Position numbers and translations under genes: made by a program. The notes below the pieces were generated by a model. That model saw only the letters and a list, made by a program, of their open reading frames with translations, was not told the origin of the DNA and did not search any database. This document shows positions 33,241-64,000 of a DNA stretch of 64,000 nt, in pieces (position 1 is the first letter of the stretch; the number at the start of each line of letters is the position of its first letter). The stretch spans positions 124,001 through 188,000 of the forward strand of contig PUQB01000442.1 of NCBI GenBank assembly GCA_003024785.1, written 5' to 3'. This DNA comes from Selaginella tamariscina (Eukaryota; Streptophyta; Lycopodiopsida; Selaginellales; Selaginellaceae).

Positions 33241-34684
33241 GGTAATGAAATGTAAGCAAATATGAATGCACATAATTAAATCATTGAAGTATAATAACAA
33301 AATGCATCTTGTTGTTATTGTGAAAATAAACTTATTACATAATTAATAATGCCAATTAAGGAAATCACCCCACTCCTAATTAAAGAATTACTAAACAAGA
33401 ATCATCTTGTTATTCAACAAGACAATGCAAACGAAAGATATACAAATTACATACATCTAAAATACAAATTAGATACATATATGAATGTTATAACTAAAAT
33501 GGGAATGATACATAAAAATGGGAATATAAATAAAAAATTTAATTAATACTTACATATTAATTATTAATATTTTAAACATACATTTTAAAAAATATTCTTT
33601 CTTTAAACCTATATTATTCTAAAACTTATTTCTTTATATTAAAAAATGTTAATTAAATAATAAAAATTATTAATTAAGAAAATGGGACTATATACATTTC
33701 ATTTTAGTTATAGAAACATCTAAAATCTCGATAAGAAGCATCTTGTTCAAAATAATTAATGATTTTTATGTTTCATTTCTAATATTCTAATATGTAAACG
33801 ACAATCACATTGTACTTGGGATAAATGGTTCTTGTTTTAAACTTCATTTCTTAAACCATGTTTTATTTTTTGAATCAAATCATCTCGTTCGTTCTAAAGG
33901 AGTACAGAATACCATGTCACTTGTTCTAAATGATATATTGATTTTAATATTCAAATATTAATAACATTGGTCCAGCAACAAAACTTGGGACGAGAAACAT
34001 CTCGTTACCAATATCCTGTAAGTTTTCTCGAACAAGAAGCCTCTCATTCTTTAATACATTCTTTAAGACATTCTTTTCCAACCAAAAAGAAGATTTTTTC
34101 ATGTTAATGATAAATGTTTTTTTTAAAAATGAGATTGAAAAATAAGCACCACAGGATCAACAAATCTTGCATGTGTGAAAGAATATTTGGTATCACTCAC
34201 CAAGGATCTACAAAACGAGATGTTTTTACTATGATTCTAATAGAAATCAAGCTATATCACTAAGATATTGAAACAATATTTACCTTCTAAGTTAGTGTGG
34301 AGTTGGTATAGTTGTGGAAGGTAACAAAAATTTTGTAAAAGCAATCAAAGATGAAACTAAACTCCAATGGCGAAATTATTTAAACCACTAATGACAAAAA
34401 GTTCAATTAGATACCCAATGGCAAAATTAAAAACCCAAATGGTGGACAATCCAATTTACAAAGATTTAAATAAACCCTAATCAATAAATCAATGGAAGAA
34501 AATTGATCAATGGAAAACCAATTAGTTAATCAAACATATATGGAAAAACCCAATGCAACCCAATGCTACAAGAAAGCCTTAATCTTTGGAAACCATGATG
34601 GTGGGGTTATAGGTTGCACATGCGTCTATACACACATGCTACCTGAAATTTGTAACTAGGGTTTGTGGACTTGCCACCCTCGGC
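33241..34684. other. AT-rich intergenic DNA; dispersed repeat fragment
   Basis: The stretch near 33,600-33,715 (AAAATGTTAATTAAATAA ... AATGGGACTATA ... CATTTTAGTTA) resembles about 42,590-42,705 in the same orientation, so it is a dispersed repeat. No gene recognised. Confidence 0.55.
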
Positions 34685-34823
34685 GGCGGGATTAATCCCG
34701 CCGCTATATGGTTAGACCCTCGGCGGCAGGATTAATCCTGCCGCCCTTTGCTAACCATATAGCGGCGGGATTAATCCCGCCGCTACACACGTCTCACCAT
34801 ATAGCGGCAGGATTAATCCCGCC
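34685..34823. repeat. Palindrome array A: four copies of GGCGGGATTAATCCCGCC
   Basis: Copies start at 34,685, 34,725, 34,764 and 34,806 (spacing 39-42 bp). Two are perfect 18-bp palindromes, one has GGCAGG...CCTGCC and one is mixed. The spacers contain CTATATGGTTAG and its complement, so neighbouring units are also mirrored. Confidence 0.95.
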
Positions 34824-34857
34824 GCTACGCACATATATATTTATATATATGTATATG

Positions 34858-35333
34858 TGTGTAGGAGAGTGCGTGTGTGTGCCAAAGATAGACAAATCAG
34901 ATAAATTATACTGATACACAAATTATATACAAATTATACCGATACACAAATTATATGTATATCGTGTGTATGCGTGTGTGAAACAAATAAAATCATACAG
35001 ATAAACAAACAAATCAATAAAATATATATATATATATATATATATGTGTATGTATATATATTATATATATAGGAGTGTGCGTGTGTGTCCGAGAAATAGA
35101 TAAATAAATAAAATTATACAGATACTAGTAACATAATATATGTGTATATATGTACATAGGTATATATATATATGTGTGTATATGTTATCGTGTGTATGCG
35201 TGTGTGAAACAAATAAAATCATAAGATAAACAAACACACACACACACATATATATACAGGAGTGTGCGTGTGTGTGCGAGAGTACAATTAACAAATCAAT
35301 AAAATTATACAGATACACACACACACATATATA

Positions 35334-35394
<61 letters not shown>

Positions 35395-35697
35395 GTATGT
35401 ATAGGAGTGTGCGTGTGTGTGCGAGAAATAGATAATATAATAGAATTATACAGATACTGGTACATTATATGTATGTATTATATGTATATAGGTATATATA
35501 TATATGTGTGTGGTGTGTGTGTATGTATATCGTGAGTATGCGTGTGTGAGCGAAACAAATAAAATCATACAGATAAACAGGAGTGTGCGTGCGTGTGCAA
35601 GAGATAAAATTAATAAATTAATAAAATTGTGCAAGAGTAAAATTAATAAATTAATAAAATTATACAGATACACAAACACAAACACACACAGATACAG

Positions 35698-35730
<33 letters not shown>

Positions 35731-35812
35731 ATATATCTGTGTGTGTATATGTATACAAGTGTGCGTGTGTGTGCGAGAGATAGAGATCTATAAAGAAGAG
35801 AGAGAGAGAAGG

Positions 35813-35848
<36 letters not shown>

Positions 35849-35888
35849 CACATAGATATATATATATATATATATATCTGTGTGTGTG

Positions 35889-35925
<37 letters not shown>

Positions 35926-36055
35926 ATGTATACGAGTGTGCGTGTGTGCGAGAGAGAGATCTAAATTATATTATTAAGATACACACACATATAAATATAT
36001 ATAATAAATAAACTCAGAGGAGTGTGTGAGAGAGAGAGATCTCACCTGTGTGAGA
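34858..36055. repeat. Complex minisatellite array (GGAGTGTGCGTGTGTG units)
   Basis: About ten units, each with AGGAGTGTGCGTGTGTGYG, then GAGA, then AATAAAATTATACAGATAC, then CA/TA tracts. A second unit type (GTATGCGTGTGTGAAACAAA) alternates with the first between 34,965 and 35,580. All reading frames here are repeat artefacts. Confidence 0.9.
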
Positions 36056-36409
36056 GAGAGAAGGAGATTTCACCGCCGCCGCCTTACAAACCCTAGGAAT
36101 ATAACTTAAACCTAAAAGGAATAGAATATATATTAACCCTTAATCGAATATTCCTTCTAAGAATATACTTAAACCCTAAAAAGATTAAACTAGTGATTCG
36201 CCCTAAACGAATATTCTTTCATTATATTATCAGCGTGTGCGTGTGCGTGGGTGTATCACATACACCCCAAGAATAAATATCATGCAGGGTTTAACACGTG
36301 TGTGTCCATGAGAATGTTAAAGTTTCACGTGCAGCGATACATATATACACACATAGTATTATATACATAGACATACATACATATTAGTACATATTAATAT
36401 TAGAGAGAC

Positions 36410-36915
36410 AGAGTACATGATCATGTATGGTGTGTATGTATAAGAGAAGAGTGACAATACATATTATGGATCATGCATGGTGTGTATGTTTGAGAGAGAG
36501 AGATAGTACATATTTATATGGATCATGCATGGTGTGTATGTATGAGAGAAGAGTGAGAGTGTTAACAAATTAAATTATACACATTGGATATATTAGTACA
36601 CACATACATACACACATGTATACACACAGACATACATACATATTACATGTGTAAATTCAATGTGTTACATAGGGTTTAGGGTTTAGGGGGATGGATCATG
36701 CATGGTGTTTATGTATGAGAGGAGTGAGTGTTATACACATATACATTATACATATTACATAATATTGTAACATCAGTATATTATGGATCATGCATGGTGT
36801 GTATGTATGAGAGAAGAGACAGGCTACATATTATGGATCATGATCATGCATGGTGTGTATGTATGAGAGAAGGGATTATGCATGGTGACACTGTGTATGT
36901 ATGAGAGAAGAGATA
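36410..36915. repeat. Tandem repeat with GATCATGCATGGTGTGTATG units
   Basis: At least seven copies of GGATCATGCATGGTGTGTATG followed by TATGAGAGAAGAG, at variable spacing (about 50-170 bp), separated by ACATATTATG or longer unique stretches. TTTAGGG words (about 36,666-36,686) sit next to one unit. A larger duplicated flank (ACATGTGTAAATTCAATGTG) is at about 36,646 and 37,011. Confidence 0.85.
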
Positions 36916-37222
36916 GAGTGTTAACAAATGAAAATCGTACACATGTATATATTATATAGTACACATATATACATACACATGTGTATACACACATACATAT
37001 ATATTACATGTGTAAATTCAATGTGTTACATACACACACTGAGTACATATAGATCATACATGCGTTGAACATGATGTTTTTCAATAAAGAAGCAACATAT
37101 AATTTCTCAAGTTTGGTTTAGGGCAATGTGCATGTGTGTGCATATGTGTCTCTGTAAGTGCTTCTAATGCGTGTGCACATGTATATATAAATTTATGATT
37201 GTGTTTATATATAATATGTGCA

Positions 37223-37720
37223 AAACAAACATCGAATAATTAAGAAAATAATATTAATATACACACTATGAACATATTTTAAATTATACATAATAATATA
37301 TGATTTTATCTAATATATAGCCATATATAGTTTTAATAATATATATTAATTTAATATTGATAATAGTTCTTGAAATAATAACAAATTAATTGAGAAAATC
37401 CCATTAATATATACAAATGTAGAATAATTACTGAGATAATTAAGAATAAGACTAATTTAATTATGATAATCATGTTTAATATTGGAATATTCTTTGAATA
37501 TTAAGAAAATAACAAAGAATATCCCATTAATAGTAGGAAATGTAAATTAATTACTCGAGTAATTAAGAAAATAATAATAATAAACAGACTATGAATATAT
37601 TTTAAATGATACATAATAATATATCAATTTATTTATTGTATTAGTGTATATATATATATAATATAAACTTAATAATATATACTTGAATATTAAGAATGTA
37701 GAATAATTACAAAAATTTCG
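37223..37720. repeat. Diverged direct duplication, AT-rich
   Basis: A segment beginning TAATTAAGAAAATAATA and containing ACTATGAA(C/T)ATATTTTAAAT and ACATAATAATATAT occurs at about 37,237 and again at about 37,562. No coding capacity. Confidence 0.7.
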
Positions 37721-37902
37721 TAATATTAAACAGCTTGAAGCACTTGAATGACATTAAATGCAATTTTAAAACACTCATTGGAATTGGAGAGTATATATGT
37801 CAGACTGTCGGTTATTTGTTTCAACTCATCTTAAATTTTCTTTTCTGTTATTTCAAAAATTTTGAATTTCTGACATAAGTATTGTCGGTCTGACATGTAA
37901 AT

Positions 37903-38087
37903 TTGAAAATGCATTTAATTTCCCACTCAAATTCAGATCTGGTTCTTTCTCGGCAAGGGTTTCTTTATTTCTTTATTTTTCACTCTTCAGATTTTTTTTT
38001 TCTTCTTAGTGATCAGCTCAGGAGCGACATTAAATTGGGTGCGCTATTGTTTATAGGAAAGCACGGCGCCTTCAGTGCTGTTTACAA
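37903..38087 (+). CDS. Possible first exon with kinase glycine-loop-like end
   Basis: An open frame starts with ATG and runs 61 codons to a strong donor (AA|GTAAGT). Its last residues, IGKHGAFSAVYK, resemble the nucleotide-binding loop of protein kinases, though with a His where the second Gly-adjacent residue is usual. No further kinase motif follows; the next recognisable acceptor (39,096) leads into the transposase-like region in a different phase. It may be a captured gene fragment or chance similarity. Confidence 0.3.
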
Positions 38088-38256
38088 GTAAGTATTATAA
38101 ACAAATTTAAATATATTTATAAAGATTCACTCTCTTACATTCTCTCTTAAATTTTAGAATTTAGGGATTTAGGAATGCATTAGGATTACAATATATTCTG
38201 TTAGGGATTTATCCCGTTTAAATATACTTTTAACTTAATATTCTGGTTAGCCGGGC

Positions 38257-38949
38257 GGCGGGATTAATCCGGCCATTTTTTTTGCCTCTTCGAAGAGGTG
38301 GCGGGATTAATCCCGCCACCATCTCTTTATAGCTATGACAGAATTAGTCGGGCAATGCTTCTCCGCCTCTTAAGAAGAGCGGCGGGATTAATCCCGCCGA
38401 TAACTCTCTCAACTGATAAAGAGATACTTGAATTTATTAAAAGAGTTATCTGGGATTAATCTCACATCCATTTTAGGAGGCAGAGAAGGTGTGGCGGGAT
38501 TAATCTCGCCATCACATTCCTGTTTTAAATATTTGTGGGCAGGATTCATCCCGAATTTCTTTAAAATCATAATTTCGGAGAGAATTGTGGGCGGGATTAA
38601 TCCCGCCCTTATTCCCCGTCGTCAGAGTTGTGGGCGGGATTAATCCCGCCGCCTATTCTCCTTCGTCAGTGTTGTGGGCGGGATTAATCCGCCCCCTCTT
38701 CCTCGTCGGGGATTTGCGGGATTAATCCCGCCGCCGATTCCCTCCGCGAGGAAGAAGCGGCGGGATTAATCCCGCCGGTACTTCCTCGTCGGAGGGAGTC
38801 CCGGCGGGATTAATCCCGCCGCTCTCTCAGACGAGGAAGTACCGTCGCGGGATTAATCCCGCCGACGATTCCCTCCCGCGGGAAGAATCGGCGGGATTAA
38901 TCCCGCCATCGTTCCTCGTCGGAGGGTCGTGGGCGGGATTAATCCCGCC
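38257..38949. repeat. Palindrome array B: about 15 copies, ~43-bp period
   Basis: Copies of GGCGGGATTAATCCCGCC (some with 1-4 changes) start at 38,257, 38,300, 38,381, 38,450, 38,493, 38,538, 38,590, 38,633, 38,677, 38,715, 38,759, 38,803, 38,846, 38,890 and 38,932. Most steps are 42-45 bp, close to four helical turns. Spacers vary but share CCTCGTCGGAGGG or its complement in alternating orientation. The array is a GC-rich island in AT-rich DNA and ends 150 bp before the transposase-like gene. Confidence 0.97.
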
Positions 38950-39096
38950 CATCAGTTGTATTAATAAAGCATGAGATATTATCTTATACATAATTATGTA
39001 TTATTGCACATGCATATTATTAAGCAACCGCAGTTATGATTTCTTAGAAATATTGCATAAACAGATATCATAAATAACACAATTATTTATGTGCAG

Positions 39097-42000
39097 GACA
39101 ATATGTATAATACTGGAGATAAAAAGTCTTCTTCTTCGGAACAACGAGATAGTTGGCACTGGAACTGTGGAAGTTCGAATAATGCATCATGTCACAATAT
39201 TGCCCAAGGATCTTGTGTGTACGTATGGGTGAACACCATTTTCAAGCATGTTGAGGTTCTGGGAATGGAATTTGAGGAGGGTTCTCCTGTATTGTGGAAT
39301 TTGGATGAAGTCAAGGCTGACACAGAATATGCAGAGTCACAAACAAATAGTAGCACGATTTACCAGATGATGGCTTGCCTGCTGTGATGGATGAGGTGAT
39401 TCTCTTTCTTCGTGAGATTGAGTCGGGGAGGCATCATCACAGCTATAAATCCAATGGAAGCAGTGTCAGAAGAGAAACTAGGGTCCGACTTCGTGGGTGT
39501 AGTTGTGACAGAGGTTTCACCTAATGGCACATTGTATCCTGGATCCCTCGTGAGGTGGCGAACATCTGAATTAAGACGGCAAGATGGTTCAACATATTCT
39601 GGGTTGGATTTCAATAATAACAACCCGGAAGAACAACTCATATTTGAAGAGGTTCCTTGCATTGGTCCTATTGTAAGAAAAAGGCGATTCATGGGTTGTA
39701 GATCTTCCCCTGCAAGTTTCAGCAAGAGGGTAAAGATGGATCCTACATCTTCCGAAAGTGTTACGAGCATTTCCACGATTGACTGTTGCAAGAAGAAGTG
39801 TTGTCAGATGGCAGACCGGAATGAAATTACCCAATGTAGACATGTCTTTCGTATGCTCACCCAAAAGCAAAGGCATGAGTTTGTATATGCTGCACTAACT
39901 GGGTGTATTGATGGAATGGCCTCGGACACAGGTTATCAGAGTACATCCATGGTATTTAATAAGGTGGCCATCTGCTTCAAAGCTTGGTACAGTATATACG
40001 GGATCCCAAAGACCACGTTCTACCGTCGGAGGGATGAGTGGCTAGATGGAGCGCGAACCTCAGTCATGGGAACACTCGCTTGGTCAAAACCCGCTCTCAC
40101 ATCATGGCAGCCATAGAGATACTCAAGGCTTTTGTGGAAGCAAATGCAGACAGGATGCCTCACAAATGCCGAACCACAAATGCAGGGGTCAGGGAAAATC
40201 TCAAGGTTTTGCCTTCAATCTACACTCAATTGAAGCTGTGTGAACATGTGAACAAGTGCCTCAGTTTGATGGGGCCAAGCAATCTGCACTGGTACCTTCA
40301 ACAACATATGGAATACTCATTTTAAGGATGTGGAGATTGCAAAACACTCTAGCTTTTCAAGTGTGACACTTGTACATCATTGAAGGCTGCAGAGGCTTGT
40401 GCAAAAACCTTGGTGGAGATCACTACCATTCAAAGAAGATGGAGGCCCACATGATTGCACAACAAACTTGCCGGTCTCAGTACTATGCACACCGCATGCT
40501 TTCTGTGTCACGCCCATCAGAGTACCTGTGCTTGATCCATGACAAGATGGATCATTCAAAGACCAGCATTCCAAAGCTCTTTGCAACACCAAAGTGCCTT
40601 GGAAATGTCATGAAACTTCCGATTTCATTGACAGGTGTGCTAACACATGGACACGGTTGTGAGTCATATGGACACTTTTCACTTCCACATTGGTCTAGCG
40701 ACTCCAATTTCACTATTGGGTCGTTAGCCATGTGTTTCAGAAACCTTGAAGCCCACTCACAGACAAGTCCTATCAGTGATCTCAAAGTGAAGAAACAACA
40801 CCTTCAACCTTTACATAATGCTCTCATGAACACGTCTGCACTTGAGGCTACTTGGGAATATGAGAGGCATTGTCAGCACCTGCACAAAAAACAGATGGCC
40901 CTGTTGAGAGTTCAGGTTCAGTGGAGGGATCTAGCTCAAATAGTGTACATGTGTCCTCAACATCAAATAAGCTTCCTCGTCATTTGCTTTTACAGATGGA
41001 TAATTGTGCAGGCGAGAACAAAAATAGGTAAATCATTTTACTTAAGGGTTTCTCAAGCTCATACTTATTTTTATTTTCTAGATATGTGCTAGCATACTTG
41101 TCAATGCTTGTTGCCAAAGGTGTGTTTGAAACAATCACGCTCAGTTTTCTTATGGTTGGTCACACTCATGAAGATATTGATGCGTTCTTCAGCAAGGTCT
41201 CCAACTCTACAAAAAGGACAAGTGCACTTACCTTACCGCATATGATGAATCTTTTTGAAAATTGCATCTCCAAAAAAAGTTGTGCTTTGCTTGTGACTGA
41301 GGTGCCAGACTTCAAAAAATTTCTCAAGGAGTATATAAAAGAGGGAGTGATTCTTTAGTTGGTCACCTTGTGCCGCTACAATTCTTTTTCTCCATACGAG
41401 ATGGTATACCTATTATGCAGTACAAGTTACGGCCATCAGAGCAGGAGTGGTTACCGAAAGAGGGTTAATGCTCTTCAAAAGTGGAGAGAATGGAAAGCCA
41501 CTTCTCCCAGAAGGACAACCAGACCCTATTCCATTGAGTGCCCAGCTCAAGGAACAAGAGGTTATTATTGATGGCATCAAAAAATATGTGGCATGGGTTC
41601 AAAAATCGATGCCAAAGAATTCTGATAAGGCAACTGGTTACTCAGAACTATATAAGCATGTGGTGACTATTGGGAGACTGTTGTTCGAGAGTTGGAAGGG
41701 CCTACTGTCACAAGTACAGAATTGCAACACCCTTTTTGGCCTAAAACAAGGTGGCGAGAGGAGATTGAAATGACATCACTGAGCACAGACGACATAGAAG
41801 CCAGTAGTGATGTGGAAGTGCAAACCCCACACTTTGTTGGACAAAGGAACCAAAAACCTAAAGCATACTTTGATTGCTGCCAGGATCTTCAAAAACTAAT
41901 GATGGTTCTCATTACTCCAGATGCGTCATATAATCAGCCTATTTGGATGGGTCAAATTATCGACACACCTGAAGTAATCACAAAAAATAGTATTGTTAAG

Positions 42001-42206
42001 GTTGCATGGTTCAAACCAAAAAAAGGCGACACGAGAAGGAGAGCGAAAGATATAATGGATGCCTAGAGAAAACATGGTCTCCCAATCAAAAAGACCCAGC
42101 ATGTTTTATAAATGTTAAATCCATTCGATATGGGTGGATGTCAAGAAGCGTTGATAAAGTCACGATTAACAAAACTGCAAGGGAATGTATGTTTTCTGAA
42201 GCTTAA
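39097..42206 (+). pseudogene. DUF7869-type transposase-like gene, frame-broken
   Basis: I assign this to the DUF7869 family of RNase-H-fold, presumed transposase proteins from motif recall. In order: a Cys-rich segment (CCKKKCCQMADRNEITQCR, about 39,783-39,840); a helical region ending KTTFYRRRDEWLDG; HDKMDHSKTSIPKL (about 40,537-40,580); QMDNCAGENKN (about 40,990-41,025); and VGHTHEDIDAFFSKV (about 41,155-41,199). These give acidic residues in the expected D-D-D/E order. A 54-bp intron (41,028-41,081, GT-AG) joins ENKNR to YVLAYLSML in phase. The C-terminal part (YFDCCQDLQKLMMVLITPD, about 41,860) is BAH-like at best. At least five frame changes and one stop (41,356) break it, though long conserved blocks survive. 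Confidence 0.7.
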
Positions 42207-42805
42207 AGCAATTACAAAATTATAAAATATCATATATTTAATATTCATAATTATTATAAACTCTTTAATAATAGTACCAAATTGTTTACTTAACTATATA
42301 AATTTAAAAAATGATATGGAAGATTGACTATATTATTATAGGATTTTATATATATTATTACTACTACAAATTTTTAATTAATAATGTTATATTTAAATAT
42401 TAATATTTTAATAACAACATCAATATTTATATAATGTACCTCTTATGCTCTTCCTTAATTGTTATATTAGGCAATATATTATATAATTTAATACTTCTAC
42501 TTTTATAATGTTATTAATTTTTGTTCAATGAATGCTATAATTTATTAAAGGGTCGAATACAAAATAGAATATTCTAAAGAATATTCTTTTTCAAACATAT
42601 ATTCTAAAGAATATTCCTTTAATATTAGAAAATGCTAATTAAATAGCTAAAATTGCTAATTATTAGGAAATGGGACTATAGCCATGCCCATTTTAGTTAC
42701 AACATGCATTAAACCTGTATTAAGGGTCTATCGGAATAAGGAAGAACAAAAATAGAGTACATATCAAACTTCAGAATGTCGGGAAAGAGTAAGGATGGCA
42801 AGGTA
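42207..42805. other. AT-rich spacer with dispersed repeat
   Basis: Contains TATTCTAAAGAATATTC twice (about 42,567 and 42,600) and the same dispersed repeat as near 33,600-33,715. No gene recognised. Confidence 0.6.
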
Positions 42806-49179: not shown

Positions 49180-49787
49180 TGTCACGACCCGATACAGAAT
49201 ACAGGATTCCGGATACAGGATATGGGTTGCAGGATTTTCCTACAGGATATTCCTACCAGGATTCCGGACACAGGATACGGTTGCAGGATATTCCTACAGG
49301 ATATGCCTAGAGGATAAGGGACATGTGGACTCATCTTAGCCTCTGCATGCATGCAGTCACTTTTGCATGCATGTAACCACTTTTAGCACTCATGCCTAGA
49401 TTAGCTCTTGGAGTTGTGAGCATAAAAGCTCCGACCTAATTGTTGTACAATCAGTTACTATCACACCAGTCTTACTACGATCAATTTTGTCTTGTCTTGT
49501 TCTTATCTTGCTCCTTGCTTCTTGTTCTCTCCTTGTCTCGCTCCTGGATCCTGTCTTGCTCCTGTCTTGCTCCCGGATCCCGTCCTGTTCCTGTCTTGTT
49601 CCTGGATCCTGTCTTGCACCTTCCTGTCTTGTTCCCGAATCCTATCCTGATCCTGTCTTGCTCCTGGATCCGTCCTATTCCTGTTCCTGTTCCTAATTCC
49701 TGTCCTGCTATCGGTCCTGCTCCTAAGTCAAGTCTTCCCGTTCTTAGAATCCTGCTCTCTTCCTGGTTCCTGGATCGTGGCTTGACA
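49180..49787 (+). repeat. 5' LTR of the chromovirus
   Basis: 608 bp. TATA-like CATAAAAG at 49,421-49,428, and a predicted transcription start near 49,450. Two low-complexity blocks: CAGGATA-type repeats (49,190-49,310) and TCCTGTCTTGTTCCTGGATCC-type repeats (49,500-49,770). Confidence 0.92.
49452..49463 (+). promoter_or_regulatory. Predicted self-primer at transcript 5' end
   Basis: CAGTTACTATCA lies about 25-30 nt downstream of the TATA-like box and is the exact reverse complement of the PBS at 49,791-49,802. In the Tf1/sushi group the first nucleotides of the RNA fold onto the PBS and prime cDNA synthesis in place of a tRNA. Confidence 0.75.
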
Positions 49788-49790
49788 GTT

Positions 49791-49802
49791 TGATAGTAAC
49801 TG
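49791..49802 (+). promoter_or_regulatory. Primer-binding site of the chromovirus
   Basis: TGATAGTAACTG, 3 nt after the LTR end. It complements 49,452-49,463 over 12 of 12 bases, and I see no fit to the usual initiator-Met tRNA PBS (TGGTAT...). Confidence 0.75.
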
Positions 49803-49879
49803 CTTCATAGTTCTCCGTTTTCCAGCTACCTTTTTCTTGATTCTTTTCCTTCATTTTCCTCCTTTTTCTTTCCTAGATC

Positions 49880-50860
49880 ATGGCTGATTTTGAGCGCTTT
49901 CAACGCGAGCACCAAATGTTACTTCATGAGCTGGCCACTTTGCACAAGTGGTCACCGACCTGCAAGGTTCCACCAATGCGGCACATGCAGCAGCTGATGC
50001 ATCCTCCAAGGCTGCTGCGCAGGCTCTCTCCCAGGCATCGGTGGTTCCCTCTTCATCGAACTTTCTTCGGAGCCGAAGGTTAGCATGCCAGAGAAGTTCA
50101 GTGGCAATCGTGCCGATTTCCAAGGTTTCCTGAATCAGATCCGGCTCTTGATCCGTATGCAACCACGGCGCTACTCGACTGATGCTCAAAAGGTGGGTCT
50201 TTTGGCATCCTTACTAAGTGGATCTCCACGGGCTTGGGTTGCCCCCTTGCTGGAGCGTGATGACCCATTGATGGAAGACTTTGAAGGTTTCGTGGCTGCC
50301 TTTGAAGCCTGTTTTGGAGATCCTGATAAGTACCGTTTGCATGCACGAAGTTACGGAAGCTCACTCAAGGATCCCGACCAGCTTCCGTCTATGCATCCGA
50401 ATTTCAGCAACTTTGCACGAACATTCCATGGGACGAGACTGCATTGATCGAACACTTCCGTTTTGGGTTGAGGGATGACGTGAAGGACCTTCTCCTTACG
50501 TTACCGGATGCCCAAACATTAGCGGAGATCATGCAACAAGCTGTTCGTTGCGACAACCGTTTGTTCGAGCGTCGTCAGGAAAGATCCCGTCAGCAGTTCC
50601 TGCAAACCAATCCTGCAGCTGTGGTACATGTTCCTGCACCACCTTCTGGAGTAGTTCCTATGGAGGTTGAGAAATCCAAGCGTGGCTCTCTTTCCGCTGC
50701 TGAGAAGCAACGTCGTCGCAGTGAGAACCTGTGCTTGTATTTGTGGTGGAGCAGGACACAAGGTGGCAGATTGTCCTATTAAAGCCAGGAACTTCAAGAC
50801 GCGTGAAGTTGAAGCTGAAGTTCAGTCGGAAAACTCCAATGTCCACTTCGTCTAGGAGCC
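49880..50860 (+). pseudogene. Chromovirus gag (capsid and zinc knuckle)
   Basis: Starts MADFERFQREHQMLLHELA. The capsid core is FSGNRADFQGFLNQIRLLIR, then LLSGSPRAWVAPLLERDDPL and IEHFRFGLRDDVKDLLLTLP. A CCHC knuckle, LCxxCGGAGHKVADCP, is readable at about 50,729-50,783 after a frame change. At least four frame changes interrupt an otherwise well-preserved ~320-residue gag. Confidence 0.85.
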
Positions 50861-50907
50861 GCGAAGTTGGACGTAGGTGCAGGCTCCATTGGTGCTGCTC
50901 ATACCAT

Positions 50908-51279
50908 CCATCACTTAAGTTTCCTGTACACATTCATCTTAATAATCGAGAGCTCATGGAGTTTGCCTTGTTAGACACTGGTGCAAATGCATGCTTCATG
51001 GATGACACGTTTGCAACTCAACATGGCATTTCGGTGGTGAAGTTGAAGCGTGCAGTTCCTGTAGAGGTGGCCGATGGGCGTCTGATTGCTTCTGGCGCAG
51101 TTACCCATGCTACCGAACCTCTCTCCTGCAGTTATGGCACATTCAACTGTTCAATTTCCTTCAACTTGATCAAGACTCGGTCGACTCCCATCATTTTGGG
51201 CATGCCATGGTTCGTTGTTGCAAATCCGCAGATCGACTGGAGGTCTAGGACGCTCACGTTTTCCTCTCCGACAAGCTAG
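50908..51279 (+). pseudogene. Chromovirus aspartic protease
   Basis: FALLDTGANACFMDDTFA holds the intact Asp-Thr-Gly active site. The downstream TPIILGMPWFVVANPQIDWR corresponds to the conserved ILG-x-PW flap/C-terminal motif. It is followed by a Pro/Ser-rich linker (51,280-51,880) built from ATCCTGTAC-type repeats. Confidence 0.85.
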
Positions 51280-51884
51280 GATCAATCCTGTACCTTCCTT
51301 GTGCAGGATACATCCTTAGTATCTGAGGCAGTACAAGCTACAGGATTGACCGTGCCTGTTCCTGTACCAGTGTTGAAGACTCCTCCTCGACAGGATTCAC
51401 CTCATGTCAGTTCCTCAGCACATCGCAGGCTCTCTCCACTCCTGTAAGTTTGCGGTGTCCTGTACAGGGTTCTTCCAATCCTGTATCAGTGTCGAAGGTT
51501 CCTCCTCAACAGGATCCACCTCCTGTTGATTCGTCAGCACATTCGCAGGCTTTTCCACTCCTGCGCAACCACGGACTCCTGTACAGGATTCTTCCAATCC
51601 TGTACACTCATCAACACCACACAGGTTTTTTCCAATCCTGCCTCTTTCTGTTACCCTGCTTCTGTTCCACCCCCAAGATCCTTCCTCTTTTTCAGTCACA
51701 GCTCCCTCCTTCTCCTCTCCGAGTTCTTACCACTACCATGCATGAACTCGCCACTGATCCTGCTCCTTTCCACCTTTTTGCCTTTCAAGTAACTCCTACG
51801 TCCTCTTCTACCTTTCCTGTATCCGACTCCTTTTTTCAATCTCCTTCCCTACTCCTTCTCCTTCTCCTCCTTCTTCCCTACCAT

Positions 51885-52780
51885 CCAAGTATCACGCCTT
51901 TAAGGACGTTTTTGACAAAGCACAAGGCTGCAGTTCTTCCTGTTCACAGGTCCTACGACTGTCCTATTGATCTTGCGGAAGGAAAGACTCCACCATTCGG
52001 ACCGATTTATGCATTGTCACCCACAGAGTTGGAGGTTCTTCGTCAGTACATCGAGGACAACTTGGCATCCGGCTTCATTCGTCACTCAAAGTCCCCTGCA
52101 GGAGCGCCTATCTTCTTTGTCAAGAAGAAGGATGGGAGTTTACGTTTGGTTGTGGACTACAGGGGTTTGAATCAAGTCACCATTCGGAATCGGTACCCGT
52201 TGCCATTGATCCCGGAACTTCTCGATCGGCTGCGAGGAGCAAAGGTGTTCACGAAGATCGACTTACGAGGGGCCTACAACCTTGTACGGATTCGTCCGGC
52301 GATGAGTGGAAGACTGCCTTTCGTACAAGGTATGGACATTTTGAGTACACGGTAATGCCTTTCGGCCTTACCAATGCCCCAGCCGTGTTCCAACACATGG
52401 TGAACGACATCTTTCGTGACTTCTTGGACCAGTTTGTGGTGATCTACCTCGACGACATCTTGATTTTCTCCAAGGACCAGGCGGCACATGACAAGCATGT
52501 ACGACTAGTTCTAGAGCGGCTTCGCGAGCATGGCCTGTACGCGAAGTTGGAGAAGTGTTTTTTCGATAGGGATTCGGTGGAGTTCTTGGGCTACATCGTC
52601 TCTCCTGCTGGCGTTTCCATGGACATGCACAAGGTGAAGACCATCGTGGAGTGGGAGAGGCCCAAGTCGGTACGAGATGTACAATGTTTCCTTGGCTTTG
52701 CAAACTTCTACAGGCGGTTCATACAGGACTTCTCCAAGCGTGTACTTCCACTCACAGAACTCACCAAGCGCACAGGCTTT
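51885..52780 (+). pseudogene. Chromovirus reverse transcriptase
   Basis: RT fingers to thumb: [55 protein letters not shown] and VVIYLDDILIFSKD, with an intact YLDD catalytic pair. A single frame change lies near 52,310-52,355, between RPAMS and [11 protein letters not shown]. It is the best preserved domain of the element. Confidence 0.9.
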
Positions 52781-53240
52781 TCTCTTGGTCCGACAAGGCG
52801 GAACACACGTTCACAACACTCAAGGACGTCTTCACGACAGCTCCGATTTTAGCACATCCTGACCCTTCTCATCCTTTCTTCATTGAAGCAGATGCCTCGG
52901 ATTTTGCAGTAGGATCCGTAAGTTCTTGTCGGCGGAAATCAATTACGAGATTCATGACAAGGAACTCAAGGCCATTGTGGATTAGTTTGAGGAGTGGCGG
53001 CATTTCCTAGAAGGTGCTGCACATCCTGTACAAGTTCTTACGGATCACAAGAACCTGGAGTACTTTCAAACGGCTTGAGTTCTCAGTCGGTGACAGGCTA
53101 GGTGGGCAGAGTTCCTATCACGTTTTGACTTCGTCATCGTCTACAAGCCCAGTTTTCGGAATGGCAAGGCGGACGCATTGTCTAGGCGCTCTTACCTTGC
53201 ACCAAGCCCGGGCGATCCTGCATTTGACTGTCAAAAGGCA
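52780..53240 (+). pseudogene. Chromovirus RNase H
   Basis: FSWSDKAEHTFTTLKDVFTT and FFIEADASDFAVGSV (acidic active-site Asp present), then the NYEIHDKELKAIV-, [13 protein letters not shown] and [13 protein letters not shown] segments in other frames. Three or more frame changes. Confidence 0.8.
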
Positions 53241-53419
53241 AGTGTTGTTGGGTCCTAATCGATTTCGGCTTGCGACACTGCAGGTTCAGCAGGCTCCAGC
53301 AAATTCAACACTCCTATAGGACGTCCGTTTGCAGTTGGCTACAGACGACTTGGCAAAGAATGTGTTCTCACACATTCATCCTGACGTTGCAAGTTCCTCT
53401 TCCTCCAGTTCCGTCCAGA

Positions 53420-54670
53420 CTACAACCTGTTCACCATGCAGGATGGACTCCTGTACCGGAAGGTCTCCTGTACGTTCCTGCTGGTATTTCTAGGACTCGT
53501 GTGGTACAGGATTGTCATGATACCCGGCTACAGGACATTTTTGGTGTGGCCAAGACAAGTGAGTTGGTGACTCGTAACTATTGGTGGCCTGGGTTGCGAG
53601 GTTTCATGGAGAGGTTTGTACGGAGTTGTGACACTTGTAACAGTCGAAGATGCCTCATCATGCACCCTCTGGTCTTCTTCATCCTCTTCCTGTTCCTTCT
53701 GCTCCTTGGAGATCCATTTTATGGATTCCTCACAGATCTTCCTCCTCGTGGATTCGATGCAGTTCTTATGGTGATTGACCATTCACCAAGCAGGCTCATT
53801 TCCTACCCTGCAACAAGACAGCTACAGGTCAGACAACTGCCGAGTTGGTGATCTGTGAGGTGTTCTGACATCATGGTCTTCCTGAGAGCATTGTTTCCGA
53901 TCGAGGTTCACAATTCATGTCCAAGTTTTGGTGAGAGCTTCTTCGGAGTCTACAGGTTAAAGCAGATCTTTCTTCAGGATATCACCCACAAACCGATGGG
54001 CAGTCCGAACGCACAATTCAAACCTTGGAACAGTATCTTCATTGCTTCATCAGTTACCAGCAGACAACTGGTTGGACCTTCTTCCAATGGCGGAGTTTGC
54101 CTATAACAACTCCGTTCACACATCTACAGGACAAACACCTTTTTTTGCTCTTACAGGCCACCATCCACGTTTTGACTTTGCTCCTCCCGCTTCTTTTTTC
54201 CACTCCTGCAGTACAGGATTGTCTTCAGCATCTTCGGCAGGTACATGATGATCTCCAGGTTCATCTTCAGCAGGCACAAGAACGATACAAGCATCATGTT
54301 GATGCTCACCGTCAGCCGGCACCTGCATACAAGATTGGTGATCTCATGTGGCTTCTTCGTTGACACATTCACACCAACAGGCCTTCTTCTAAGTTAGATT
54401 TTCAACGATTGGGCCCTTACAGGATCGTGGCGGAGGTAAATCCTGTAGCTTTTCGACTCGAGTTACCATCCATGGTGAAACTTCATCTTGTGTTTCACAC
54501 CTCCTTGTTGGAGCCGTATCATCCTTCTTCTCTTCCCGATCGTGTTCTTCTCCTCCCCCTCCTGTGGTCATTGATACTGAACCTGAGTACGAAGTTGCAG
54601 CCATTCTTGATTCTCGTCTTCATCGCCACCAACTCCAATACTTGGAGGATTGGAAAGGTATTTGCCTACT
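53420..54670 (+). pseudogene. Chromovirus integrase with GPY/F module and chromodomain
   Basis: Zinc-binding segment (SCDTCNSRR) and core (FLTDLPPRGFDAVLMVIDHS, then AEFAYNNSVHTSTGQTPFFA). The GPY/F module is [20 protein letters not shown] (about 54,408-54,470), leading into [20 protein letters not shown]. The chromodomain is [20 protein letters not shown] followed by EDWKG (about 54,570-54,660). Chromodomains guide chromovirus integration to heterochromatin. Several frame changes. Confidence 0.85.
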
Positions 54671-55029
54671 GATCGCACTTGGGAACCTACATCCAACTTA
54701 CTCCATGCTTCTTCTAAGGTTGTTGCCTTCCATCGGCATTATCCTGCTAAATCAGGTCCCAAGACTCGTGGAACTCGTCTTTAGGGAGGAGGTGCTGTCA
54801 CCACCCGATACAGAATACAGGATTCCGGATACATGATATGGGTTGCAGGACTTTCCTATAGGATATTCCTACTAGGATTCCGGACATAGGATACGGTTGC
54901 AGGATATTCTTACAGGATATGCCACAGGATATGCCTAGAGGATAAGGGACATGTGGACTCATCTTAGCCTCTGCATGCATGCAGTCACTTTTGCATGCAT
55001 GCAACCACTTTTAGCACTCATGCCATGAT

Positions 55030-60109: not shown

Positions 60110-60700
60110 CCCGTCGCTTGTTCCCGCCGGCTGGTAGTTTGACAATGGTCAAACCACCATCAACCATGGTGAGCGTCCAGTGCAAGTCCTTGTGGATAGC
60201 AGGAGTAGCGATAACTTTGTGTCAATAAAGTTAGTGGAGGACTGTATCTTGCCCGCGAAGACTGTGCCTCAATACAAGATTGAGGGCTCAGTTGTCACAC
60301 AGAGTAAAAGTGCTTGTATGGAGGAGTTACAGTTGGAGGTTGGCAAAACCCAACTGGTGGAGTAGCATAAAGACTGTGCCTAATACGAGATTGAGGGCTC
60401 AGCTATCACACAGACTGGAACGCTTGTGTGGAGGAGTTACAGCTGGAGGTTGGCAAAGTGTGGATCCTAAGATCTAGTGGAGCACCAAGCGCATGAAGCT
60501 TGAGTACGGTGAAGTGAAAGACACTTGGATTGGAACAAAGCTTGAGTCTCCAAACAAGTTCTTCACTGTCACCTTGAGCAAAGCTACTGTGCGAGTTGTC
60601 CTTGAGGAGTTTGCTGATGTCTTCCCTCTCAAACCACCTCATGGCTTACCACCTACAAGAGGTGTGGAGCATGAGATTGTGTTGGATCAGGGTACAAAAG
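60110..60700 (+). mobile_element. Truncated gypsy fragment (protease repeat and RT start), plus strand
   Basis: VQVLVDSRSSDNFVSIKLVE (protease start) is followed by two units of a repeated segment (EELQLEVGKTQLVE, KTVPQYKIEGSVVTQS), then FADVFPLKPPHGLPPTRGVE and EIVLDQGT (RT entry). It stops abruptly where the LTR of the opposite-strand copy begins (60,701). Same family as 61,190-64,000. Confidence 0.75.
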
Positions 60701-61189
60701 TGTTAGGATCGTAGTTAGACATTTAGAAGATTCCTTGTTATGTTTATTTCATGGGCAAATATAATGGAAAAACACCAAAAACAGTATATATTATGAAAAA
60801 TCGAGAGTGGGAAGGATATATCGGAGTACGAGTCACTAACATACGGGCGAGTCACTACGCAATACAATGTTTAAAGTGGAGTACGGCATACTTGGATAAG
60901 GATAAGGAGTTACAGTAACTGAAGCTAAGAGGTAGTTACTATAACTGCTAGTACGGGACCAAAGTACGAGTATAAATAGACCAAATTAGGACTAGAAAGG
61001 TATCCCGAGACCCTCAAAAACCACCCGACCTCCCCCGAGCTGTCTCTAATCTCCACACGCTACTCTCCAAAAAGGCTTCCAATCTTAGTGTGCCCTTAAT
61101 TCTCTTAGATCTAGGTATAGCTCTTTAGGAATATTCTAGCTTATACCTTTCTAGGGAATATTTTTTGATTCGTTATACGGGTTGTAACA
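60701..61189 (-). repeat. 3' LTR of minus-strand gypsy element
   Basis: 489 bp, TGTTAGGATC...GTTGTAACA. On the minus strand it begins TGTTACAACC, preceded directly by the purine tract GGGGGGAGGA. It is homologous to the solo LTR at 42,806-43,256. The left flank CAAAAG is the expected target-duplication copy; the right copy is outside the window. Confidence 0.85.
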
Positions 61190-62648
61190 ATCCTCCCCCC
61201 ATTAGCAAGTCCTTGTCCTCAAATGCAGTATAACTTACTCAACTGGTCCTGTATCATTAGCCTCGTACATCCACAAAGAATCTACCCAGGACTTGTTCCT
61301 TGTGAGTATTCTCTTTAACTGGCTAACATGAAACACTGGGTGCACCCTCACTCCTTCTAGTAGTAGTGTAATAAATATGCCACCTTATCGATACGCTCTA
61401 GAATATCATAAGGACCTGAGTACCTGGGAGACAACTTATCATTGTGTCCCTTCCGTAAGGCCACAACAGTGTTCCGCCTTACATGTGTGGCAAATACCAC
61501 TCGGAGATATACATAGTTCCCACTTGGAACTCTTGGAAGCTTCTGTGCTCATTAGCAAACTTAATAGCTCGGCTTTGAGCTACTTGTAAGTTCTTCTTGC
61601 ACAAACTCTTAATGTTTCTAAGCTCAACACTCAAATCTTTAGCTTCCTCATCCATGTTGCCTTGAGCTTTCTTACTTGCTAAACCCAGCTCAAAAGCTGT
61701 CTTGGAATGCCGTCCAAACATAGCATAATATGGACTCATTCCAATGCCACTGTGTCCTTGGCAAATGGGTGACAAAGTCCATAGAGATACTACCCCATCG
61801 CCTGTCTGGAATAGGCAATGGTACTAATAGCCCACTTGGTTTTTCCCTGGGCACCTTTACTTGCTGACACTTGTCACAAGTCCTGCAGTACTCTATATAT
61901 TAGCTTTCATATTCCTTCAATAGAACCTTCTCTTGATCAACTCATACATTTTCCTCCCCCTAAAATGACCAGCCTCCGGGTGATCATGATGGAAATATAG
62001 TACTCGGTTGATCAAATGGTCCACATGAGGAAGATACACACAGCCACTGAGGTGCATGAGCTCAAAGGACAACTAGAGCCACCATTCTCATTTTAGGATG
62101 GAGTTTTGTACTACAATGTGCTTGAGCATGTTGAACTACTTGGCTAAACTCACTAACCGTCCTTGTTAATGCATTACATAAGCGTGTTTGAATTCTCTAA
62201 CCACTGTGGCTCTCCTAACGCGTGACACAAGCATCTACACAGCACGTTAGCCTTTCCCATGTAATGCTCAATAGGAAATTTGCCAACTCCCATGAGCTTA
62301 ACCATCCAGCGAGCTTGCTGAGAGTTTAACTCTTTCTGTTTGAACAGATACACCAAAGTCTTGTGATTGTAAACACTTTGAAACTTGCACCATAAAGATA
62401 GTGCCTCCAAACTCATAATGCATTAACAATAGCCAGTAGTTCTTGCTCATACGTTGAGTATTGTGCAGGATTCAAGTACGGCTCTTATAAGCAATAGGCC
62501 TTCCCTCTTGCATAAGTACAACTCCAATGGCCACTCCACTTGCATCACACGATACCTCATAAGGCTTAGAGGGATCTGCAATACATAAAACTGATGCACG
62601 TACCAAAGCTTGTTTCAAAGCTTGGAAACTGCTCTTCTCTGAAGCACT

Positions 62649-63317
62649 TCATGCAAAGGGAACGTCCTTCCTCAGCAACCTAGTTAACGAAGAAGCTTTC
62701 TTGGCATAATCCTTGACATACCGCCGGTAATAACCAGCCATGCCCAAGAAACTCTGTAACTTTTTTGCATTGCTAGGAAACTGGCCATTGCTCACCACTG
62801 CCACCTTCTGTGGATCAGTCTTCACTCCACTTGGCGTCACAATGTGACCCAAATACTCCACTTTGCACTGAGCAAATGCACATTTGCTCTTCTTTGCATA
62901 GAGCTTGTTCTCCCTCAACAACTGAAGAACTCTTCGCAAATGCTGCACATGCTCCTTCATATTCTTACTGTAAATAAGAATATCGTTGAGGAAGATCTCC
63001 ACAAAGTCGTGCAAGTAGTCACCAAACACCTCAGTCGTCAACCGAGTGAATGTGACTGGGCATTTGTTAAGCCGAATGGCATAACAGTGAACTCGAAATG
63101 CCCAACTATCTTGGTGAACACTCTGGCTCCACCGTGATGATCCATGATAGTATCCACACATGGCATGGGCATCTTGTCCTTCACTGTTTGCTTGTTGAGA
63201 GCTCTGTAGTCTATGCACATCCTCATGGTGCCATCCTTCTTCCTGACAAGCAATACTTGGTGCACCAAATGGAGACTTGCTCAGTTGTATGAAGCCATAT
63301 TCCAATAGCTCCATCAC
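62649..63317 (-). pseudogene. Reverse transcriptase of the 61-kb gypsy element
   Basis: 222 codons: [55 protein letters not shown] and QSFLGMAGYYRRYVKDYAKK. The middle third is shifted out of frame ([20 protein letters not shown] is in the neighbouring frame, 63,038-63,268). The catalytic motif normally YxDD reads FLND, losing the first Asp. Confidence 0.85.
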
Positions 63318-63589
63318 TTGTCTCTTAACCTCTTGCTCCTTAGCATGGCTCAGTCGGAATGGCTTACGGTAAATGGCTTTCGTACCCTATTCCACTCCAC
63401 ACCTCTTGCATGTGGTAAGCCATGAGGCAGCTCGGGAGGGAAGACGTCAGCAAACTCCTCGCACAAAGCTTTGTTCAAGGTGACAGTAAAAGAACTTGTT
63501 TGAAGACTCAAGCTTTGTTCCAAACCAAGTGTCTTTCACTTTACTATACTCAAGCTTCATGTGCTTGGTGCTCCACTAGATCTTAGGAT

Positions 63590-64000
63590 CCACACGCACT
63601 AGCTTCGCAAGAAAGAAAGTTTCCACCAGCTGGGTTTTGCCAACCTCTAGCTGTAACTCCTCCACACAAGCAATTTAGCTATGTGTGACAACTGAGCCCT
63701 CAATCTCGTGTTGAGGCACAGTCTTCGCGCATCTCCACCAGTTGGATTTTGCCAACCTCCAGCTGTAACTCCTCCACACAAGCACTGTAGCTCTCTGTGT
63801 GACATCTAAGTCCTCAATCTCGTATTGAGGCACAATCTTCATGCAGCTCCACCAGCTGGGTTTTGCCAGCCTACAGCTGTAACTCCTCCACACAAGCACT
63901 GTAGCTCTGTGTGATAGTTGAGCCCTCAATCTCGTATTGATGCACAGTCTTCATGTAGCTCCACCAGCTGGTTTTGCCAACCTCCAGCTGTAACTCCTCC
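63590..64000 (-). repeat. Tandem repeat, ~112-bp unit, in gypsy protease/RT junction
   Basis: The word AGCTGTAACTCCTCC starts at 63,649, 63,761, 63,875 and 63,986 (steps 112, 114 and 111 bp). Each unit encodes about 37 residues on the minus strand (EELQLEVGKTQLVE ... QYEIEGSVVTQS). The array runs off the window edge. Unit length not being a constant multiple of three shows small indels. Confidence 0.9.

What the first reader, a model, noticed from the sequence alone, without database searches (positions are those of the whole stretch)
38257..38949. GC-rich satellite of an 18-bp perfect palindrome at four-helical-turn spacing
About 15 copies of GGCGGGATTAATCCCGCC, most 42-45 bp apart, form a 0.7-kb island in AT-rich DNA. 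The palindrome core is kept while spacers vary, and spacers alternate orientation (CCTCGTCGGAGGG versus its complement). A conserved palindrome with variable spacers at constant helical phase points to selection for binding by a dimeric protein, all sites on one DNA face. I do not recognise it as a described plant satellite.
Basis: partly seen in the sequence, partly recalled or inferred. Interest (0 to 1): 0.88.

Follow-up and report, generated by a model that had tools for sequence, protein, structure and literature searches.

The report
Palindrome arrays inside a plant transposon
The repeated 18-letter palindrome is not a stand-alone satellite but part of a large, abundant jumping gene in a plant (probably a seedless one), where it may serve as a landing strip for a DNA-binding protein; which protein, and to what effect, is untested.

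Summary
In detail: 13 copies with up to 3 mismatches (15 with two degenerate ones) of GGCGGGATTAATCCCGCC lie at 38257-38949; a second block of 4, not in the finding, lies at 34685-34823. Genome-wide there are 27,128 exact copies in 300.7 Mb, against 0 for the reversed control. They do not look like a free satellite: 10 of 10 palindrome loci read on contig 1 belong to one family of TIR transposons (11.9-13.6 kb in three complete copies, 4-bp target duplications in 3 of 3) with a DUF7869 gene and a divergent phosphatase-like gene. Array B sits in the apparent leader intron of the DUF7869 gene, array A upstream of the other. Modal spacing is 45 bp, spread 36-47, so the one-helical-face claim fails. 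Between blocks cores are 87-94% identical while spacers look random. Arm changes show no clear compensation. Copy-to-copy tests give at most weak evidence of selection on the core. Best reading: binding sites for a dimeric protein serving the transposon, laid out like VANC target arrays in VANDAL elements. Host-factor sites and neutral expansion remain open.

The parts
38257..38949 (.). Array B: 15 palindrome cores (13 with up to 3 mismatches, 8 exact); left part with irregular spacing shared by many copies, right part a tandem array with 38-44 bp spacing here
34685..34823 (.). Array A, short in this copy: 4 cores, two exact, one with a change in both arms (GGCAGGATTAATCCTGCC)
38088..39096 (+). 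Apparent leader intron of the DUF7869 gene that holds array B (GTAAGT donor, TGTGCAG acceptor); inferred, no RNA data. Donor context found in 9 of 9 copies searched, acceptor in 8 of 9
39097..42206 (+). DUF7869 gene, broken in this copy; a contig 1 copy (C1:312117-323972) holds longer open frames, one with DUF7869 at 1e-26
42683..42709 (+). Right terminal inverted repeat; sharp right boundary shared by the window and 5 contig 1 copies, two of which share their flank and so count as one insertion
33481..33507 (+). Left-TIR-like 27 bp (3 mismatches); the DNA between it and array A does not align to the left arms of the three complete copies, and no target duplication matches the right end, so this left end is uncertain
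34841..38087 (.). AT-rich middle with many simple repeats between the two arrays (possible two-way promoter region, inferred); parts match other copies at about 65-96%

Best explanation
Shown: the arrays are internal blocks of a high-copy TIR transposon family (11.9-13.6 kb in three complete copies, 27-bp TIRs beginning ATGCA, 4-bp TSD) with a DUF7869 gene to the right and a divergent NIF-phosphatase-like gene to the left; each block lies at the 5' side of one gene, array B apparently inside its leader intron. Inferred: the 18-bp palindrome is the binding site of a dimeric sequence-specific protein, and the transposon carries many sites near both promoters to recruit it in bulk. The most likely protein is encoded by the transposon (the DUF7869 protein or the second gene), and the likely effect is to control or protect the element's own transcription, as VANC proteins do on arrays in VANDAL elements. 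My confidence is about 0.95 for the transposon part, about 0.5 for a dimeric-protein array and about 0.25 for self-encoded anti-silencing in particular.
For: 27,128 exact copies, control 0. Of the 100 places listed there, 99 fall in 10 loci that I fetched, and 10 of 10 align to the transposon, one of them (L019) only at 67-78%; 1 place (C1:2071485) was not read. TIRs, and TSDs TTAT, ATAA, ATGT. 4,288 TIR-end matches at up to 2 mismatches, control 0, of the order needed to account for the palindromes. Cores 0.87-0.94 identical between blocks whose spacers score like shuffled sequence. In 544 clustered cores the two arms change independently: 28 double changes over the nine pairs against about 34 expected, so sequence rather than pairing is kept. 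CpG observed/expected 1.26 in array B and 0.41 in the DUF7869 gene of the window copy; 0.85 in spacers alone. Arrays in an intron and upstream of a gene match where VANC21 targets lie (PMC5735166, passages).
Against: No protein, binding, methylation or RNA data. Changes on internal branches (active lineage) against terminal branches show no excess constraint on the core over 33 copies (non-CpG p = 0.86, all sites p = 0.12); a first set of 23 copies had looked more favourable (core 11:38, spacers 56:83, flank 17:23). In the closest copy pairs the core is more often not less diverged than the spacers (less in 73 of 173 pairs). CpG transitions are raised on terminal branches, so arrays in settled copies decay; the internal/terminal contrast is p = 0.083. 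The CpG contrast is not clean either: other parts of the element lie between array and gene (middle 0.69-0.76, left arm of a contig 1 copy 0.79). No VANC protein was used as a query; the element frames scanned matched only DUF7869 and NIF above Pfam's cut-offs.
Confidence: 0.5

Rival explanations
1. Host transcription-factor sites: the transposon amplified a host motif (for example E2F-like half-sites GGCGGGA/TCCCGCC, or TAATC homeodomain-like sites) to be transcribed in certain cells or cell-cycle phases.
For: Each arm GGCGGGATT is close to the E2F consensus as I recall it (from memory, no call). Arrays sit on the 5' sides of both genes. Papers on plant MITEs that mention E2F were seen only as a search listing.
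Against: The inner A/T bases differ from the recalled E2F consensus; a full 18-bp palindrome is longer than one such site needs. No binding data either way.
Confidence: 0.25
2. Neutral repeat inside a transposon: tandem turnover and short-tract conversion spread and keep the core, with no function.
For: Unit number and spacing change freely between copies. Core divergence between 9 copies (0.047) equals the upstream flank (0.049) and exceeds the downstream one (0.035). Branch tests show no significant constraint.
Against: The core is shared by three blocks whose spacers are no more alike than shuffles; turnover alone would carry the spacers along. At 15-20% spacer distance the core is less changed than the spacers in 21 of 24 pairs, in spite of its CpGs, though more than the flank (pairs not independent).
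Confidence: 0.2
3. Transposase-binding array needed for excision or for repression of the transposase, like subterminal repeats of CACTA elements.
For: Many short sites in one element; the DUF7869 protein has only a sub-threshold match to a helix-turn-helix family (HTH_psq, E 0.084 and 0.23).
Against: In C1:917618-931173 the arrays lie about 3.8 kb from the right end and about 5.1 kb from the left end, not next to the TIRs.
Confidence: 0.15
4. Structural RNA or cruciform: hairpins in the leader intron matter as structure (double-stranded RNA source, splicing, or genome instability).
For: Very strong folding: z -19.9 for array B (20 shuffles), -14.3 for array A. Outside the core, pair 10 (0.50 against 0.34 expected) and pairs 16-18 match more often than independence; related copies and units inflate this.
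Against: Strong folding follows from any palindrome. In 544 cores double changes total 28 against about 34 expected, 17 of them compensatory; only pairs 6 (12 against 9.6, 8 compensatory) and 8 (3 against 1.7, none compensatory) lie above expectation, and slightly.
Confidence: 0.1

Closest known systems
VANDAL elements with VANC target arrays (Arabidopsis Mutator-like elements)
   Same: TE-internal non-coding tandem arrays of a short motif, in introns and upstream regions, with unit number turning over between copies (PMC5735166 and PMC10398659, passages read)
   Different: Different transposon type (DUF7869, 4-bp TSD); 18-bp palindrome against a 9-bp motif (YAGTATTAY); a VANC-like protein was not sought directly; no demethylation data here
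CACTA (En/Spm) subterminal TNPA-site arrays
   Same: Many copies of a short protein site in one element
   Different: Here arrays are internal, ends are ATGCA, TSD is 4 bp (CACTA termini and 3-bp TSD recalled; papers seen as a listing only)
Sola superfamily transposons
   Same: 4-bp TSD (recalled for Sola) and presence in a moss (Physcomitrella Sola1 named in a table of PMC9033089, passage)
   Different: Relation of DUF7869 to Sola transposases not tested; the paper that defines Sola is not held
Plant tandem satellites
   Same: About 45-bp head-to-tail units in the right part of array B
   Different: Short blocks at fixed places inside transposon copies, with irregular spacing in the left part

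Membership tests
TIR DNA transposon (whole element) | Terminal inverted repeats | tested here: met
   27 bp at 89% identity between the two ends of C1:917618-931173; right end shared by the window and 5 contig 1 copies
TIR DNA transposon (whole element) | Target site duplication of fixed length | tested here: met
   TTAT, ATAA, ATGT in 3 of 3 contig 1 copies with both ends read; not met for the window copy, whose left end is uncertain
TIR DNA transposon (whole element) | Encodes a transposase | tested here: inconclusive
VANC-type anti-silencing system | Tandem arrays of a short motif in non-coding parts of the element | tested here: met
   that the parts are non-coding is inferred from splice-like signals and open frames
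VANC-type anti-silencing system | Element encodes a VANC-like protein | tested here: inconclusive
   Only matches above Pfam's cut-offs in the 10 element frames scanned are DUF7869 and NIF; VANC itself was not used as a query and may have no Pfam model
VANC-type anti-silencing system | Arrays lose DNA methylation when the protein is present | not testable with these tools
   Only indirect: CpG observed/expected 1.26 in array B, 0.41 in the gene, 0.69-0.79 elsewhere in the element; branch contrast p = 0.083
CACTA / En-Spm | CACTA termini and subterminal site arrays | tested here: not met
   Ends are ATGCA; arrays are kilobases from the ends
Sola | Sola-type transposase | not tested
   No Sola sequence or model on hand; recalled lead only
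Independent tandem satellite | Arrays occur outside any one host element | tested here: not met
   10 of 10 loci read on contig 1 belong to the transposon family; 1 listed place and the rest of the genome's copies were not read

The most novel reading that the evidence does not exclude
A second, independently evolved sequence-specific self-recognition (anti-silencing) system in plants: a DUF7869 transposon that spread to thousands of copies by placing arrays of an 18-bp palindrome next to both of its genes and binding them with its own dimeric protein.
Probability: 0.2. Interest if true: 0.78.

Novelty: new variant of a known kind. Interest (0 to 1): 0.55.

Why it matters
An exact 18-mer at about 90 copies per megabase, tied in every locus read to one transposon family, gives a ready-made probe to find the protein that reads it. 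If that protein is transposon-encoded, this would be a case of self-recognition arrays outside the Mutator-like elements and would tell what DUF7869 transposons do. If a host factor reads it, the transposon has spread tens of thousands of that factor's sites through the genome.

Tried and rejected
Free satellite: rejected, as the arrays read lie in the transposon. Helical-face model: rejected, modal spacing 45 bp with a 36-47 spread. Hairpin as the conserved feature: disfavoured for lack of clear compensatory change. The GGCAGG...CCTGCC core in array A looked like a compensating pair, but both changes are CpG transitions (read by eye). Known RNA family: none at gathering scores in the window. 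Similar DNA in plasmids: none. IMG/VR: one contig with one exact 18-mer, taken as chance and not followed. Genome contigs: no tandem pair. In print: no paper holds the 18-mer or its 14-bp core as text, the word DUF7869, or four spellings of its motif; these searches cover open-licence PMC only. The first DUF7869 protein search (window copy) found nothing at E 0.001; the second, from another copy and another part of the gene, found 66. An early sign of selection on the core from 23 copies faded with 33. Rows dropped before the 33-copy test: of 38 sequences, L041 and L045 (no match), L059 and L067 (match under 350 bases) and L010 (an insertion splits the match); L042 and L044 had been dropped before as all N.

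Full report
What is there. The block at 38257-38949 holds 13 copies of GGCGGGATTAATCCCGCC with up to 3 mismatches (8 exact) and two more degenerate ones; 100 shuffled windows hold none of the former. A second block, four copies at 34685-34823, is not in the finding. Spacing is as described; the GC peak is real.

Genome-wide. The window lies in a 300.7-Mb assembly. The exact 18-mer occurs 27,128 times, the reversed control never. The 100 places listed, all on contig 1 up to 2.08 Mb, fall into 11 clusters or groups of clusters; I fetched 10 of these, holding 99 of the 100 places. Six of them show two blocks with about 3.0-3.8 kb between exact copies, much as in the window. The host is a plant: the best PPR-protein matches are to Ceratopteris, Diphasiastrum and Selaginella at 31-52% identity, with no near-identical record among the 120 listed of 2,005, so I call it a seedless vascular plant with some doubt.

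The blocks are parts of a transposon. All 10 loci align to each other or to the complete copies over stretches around the arrays; L019 only at 67-78%, so it is an older relative, and L017 shows the left arm and array A only. The alignments stop at one place on the right...TTAGTTAYAACWTGCAT, in the window (42709) and five contig 1 copies; two of these five (ending 912565 and 931173) share their flank and are a duplicated segment, so the boundary rests on five independent insertions. Three copies read from end to end have the matching left end ATGCACGTTRTAACTAAAG... and 4-bp target duplications: 917618-931173 TTAT, 1804054-1817694 ATAA, 312117-323972 ATGT. They are 13.6, 13.6 and 11.9 kb long; the third has a run of N where array A would lie. 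The window copy has the right end and a left-end-like 27-mer at 33481, but the DNA between that and array A does not match the left arms of the complete copies, and the flanks do not match; it is shortened or rearranged.

Copy number. The right-end 22-mer with up to 2 mismatches matches 2,101 + 2,187 places, control 0. The left end is by my reading 2 mismatches from this pattern, so both ends are probably counted, giving roughly 2,000 elements. Array B holds on average 5.7 exact cores (172 in 30 readable copies, two of which have none; 2 more of the 32 fetched were all N). These 32 were picked for identical right ends, so they are not a random sample. With array A of like size, this is of the order needed to account for the 27,128 palindromes. 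That is an estimate; left ends could not be counted apart.

Genes. To the right of array B lies a DUF7869 gene, broken in the window. The copy at 312117-323972 has longer frames (530 and 392 aa), the second with DUF7869 at 1e-26. GHTHED.D..F is invariant in an alignment of 34. No solved structure matches the 392-aa part. To the left, on the other strand, is a gene with a NIF-like phosphatase domain at 5e-12. So the two arrays lie at the 5' sides of two divergent genes. Array B is enclosed by a GTAAGT donor (9 of 9 copies) and a TGTGCAG acceptor (8 of 9). The leader exon keeps one reading frame in 6 of 9 copies and not in the other 3, so I take it as untranslated; this is inference without RNA data. 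Array A lies upstream of a TTTTGCAG acceptor found in all six records searched, which stand for four loci.

How the array behaves. The left part of array B has irregular spacing shared by many copies (about 44, 82, 71, 45, 97); the right part is a tandem array of variable unit number. Over 28 copies with at least two cores the modal spacing is 45 bp and the main range 36-47. With 45 bp, successive sites are about 100 degrees apart on B-DNA, so the one-face idea fails.

Is the core conserved? In the window, cores of block B-left, B-right and A are 0.87-0.94 identical to one another while their spacers align no better than shuffled ones. This is the strongest sign that the core, not the unit, is what is kept. 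Against it: between 9 copies the core differs at 0.047 per site, the upstream flank at 0.049, the downstream flank at 0.035 and the spacers at 0.143, part of which is misalignment of tandem units (two of the nine, L012 and L013, are the duplicated segment). On a tree of 33 copies, core non-CpG changes divide 16 internal to 23 terminal, spacer and flank 101 to 161 (p = 0.86). An earlier tree of 23 copies looked more favourable. Among copy pairs, the core is less diverged than the spacers in 73 of 173 pairs at under 5% spacer distance, 93 of 105 at 5-10%, 165 of 193 at 10-15% and 21 of 24 at 15-20% (0.115 against 0.161), yet more diverged than the flank in each band (0.088 in the last) (pairs are not independent). 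So selection on the core over long times is plausible but not proven.

Is it a hairpin? RNA folding is extreme (z -19.9 and -14.3), as for any palindrome. In 544 clustered cores from 42 records (20 array pieces, 16 tiles, 5 wider loci and the window; two of the array pieces all N), double changes over the nine core pairs total 28 against about 34 expected from the single rates; 17 of the 28 are compensatory. Pairs 6 (12 against 9.6) and 8 (3 against 1.7) lie slightly above expectation, the others below. Function through pairing should give a clear excess. Outside the core, pairs 10 and 16-18 match more often than independence, which related units and copies can cause.

CpG. In the window copy, CpG observed/expected is 1.26 in array B, 1.31 in array A, 0.76 in the middle, 0.47 in the 1.2 kb left of array A and 0.41 in the DUF7869 gene. 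In a contig 1 copy it is 1.26, 1.0, 0.69, 0.79 (left arm) and 0.37. Spacers alone, from the first 20 array pieces (16 hold cores), give 0.85. CpG transitions are 1.5-2.3 times other C/G transitions on terminal branches and 0.9-1.2 times on internal ones; array total 12:43 against 45:83, p = 0.083. In the gene, over 9 copies, they are raised on both (3.0 and 2.5 times). This would fit arrays that are unmethylated in active copies and methylated after settling, as an anti-silencing model expects, but it is not significant.

Mechanism. A long symmetric site in many copies, near the starts of both genes, with unrelated spacers and no sign of pairing, is best read as an array for a dimeric DNA-binding protein. 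The closest described parallel is the VANDAL family of Arabidopsis: VANC proteins bind short motifs in tandem arrays in introns and upstream regions, and the arrays turn over fast (PMC5735166, PMC10398659; passages read). The likeness is in layout, not in family: VANC was not sought directly, and the frames scanned matched only DUF7869 and NIF above Pfam's cut-offs. Rivals are host-factor sites, a neutral repeat, a transposase array and structure, with the probabilities given.

Novelty. The palindrome and the word DUF7869 were not found in the open-licence PMC library, nor the protein motif; a wider search for such transposons gave a listing with no evident match, of which I read no paper. Repbase, repeat libraries and subscription papers were not searched, so the family may be catalogued there. 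I rate it a new variant of a known kind: arrays of protein sites inside transposons are known; this element and site seem not to be described in what I could search.

Noticed in passing
L030:2476-3543 (minus strand): The transposon carries a NIF/FCP1-like phosphatase gene (PF03031, 5e-12), either captured from the host or a true second transposon gene.
   Followed up: partly
L036-L067 (array B pieces): Copies whose 119-bp right ends are 100% identical to the window's differ from it by up to about 23% in the left part of array B (L063), which suggests recombination between subfamilies or unusually conserved ends.
   Followed up: no
L023:6949: A single isolated palindrome core lies in the left arm, about 1.8 kb from array A; single cores also lie at L010:499 and L012:290 and L027:1410.
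   Followed up: no
window 38008-38087: The apparent leader exon (start judged by eye) reads IGKHGAFSAVYK in 6 of 9 copies, resembling a protein-kinase glycine loop (recalled motif); a captured fragment or chance.
   Followed up: partly
L022 and L024 (C1 about 904 and 923 kb): Two copies 97.7% identical over 8.6 kb share the same right flank, so they are a duplicated segment rather than two insertions.
   Followed up: no
window 49180-55020 and 60258-64000: Retrotransposon-like open frames (judged by eye) and a 110-112 bp tandem repeat; DNA of the first stretch recurs at contig 1 places near the DUF7869 elements.
   Followed up: no
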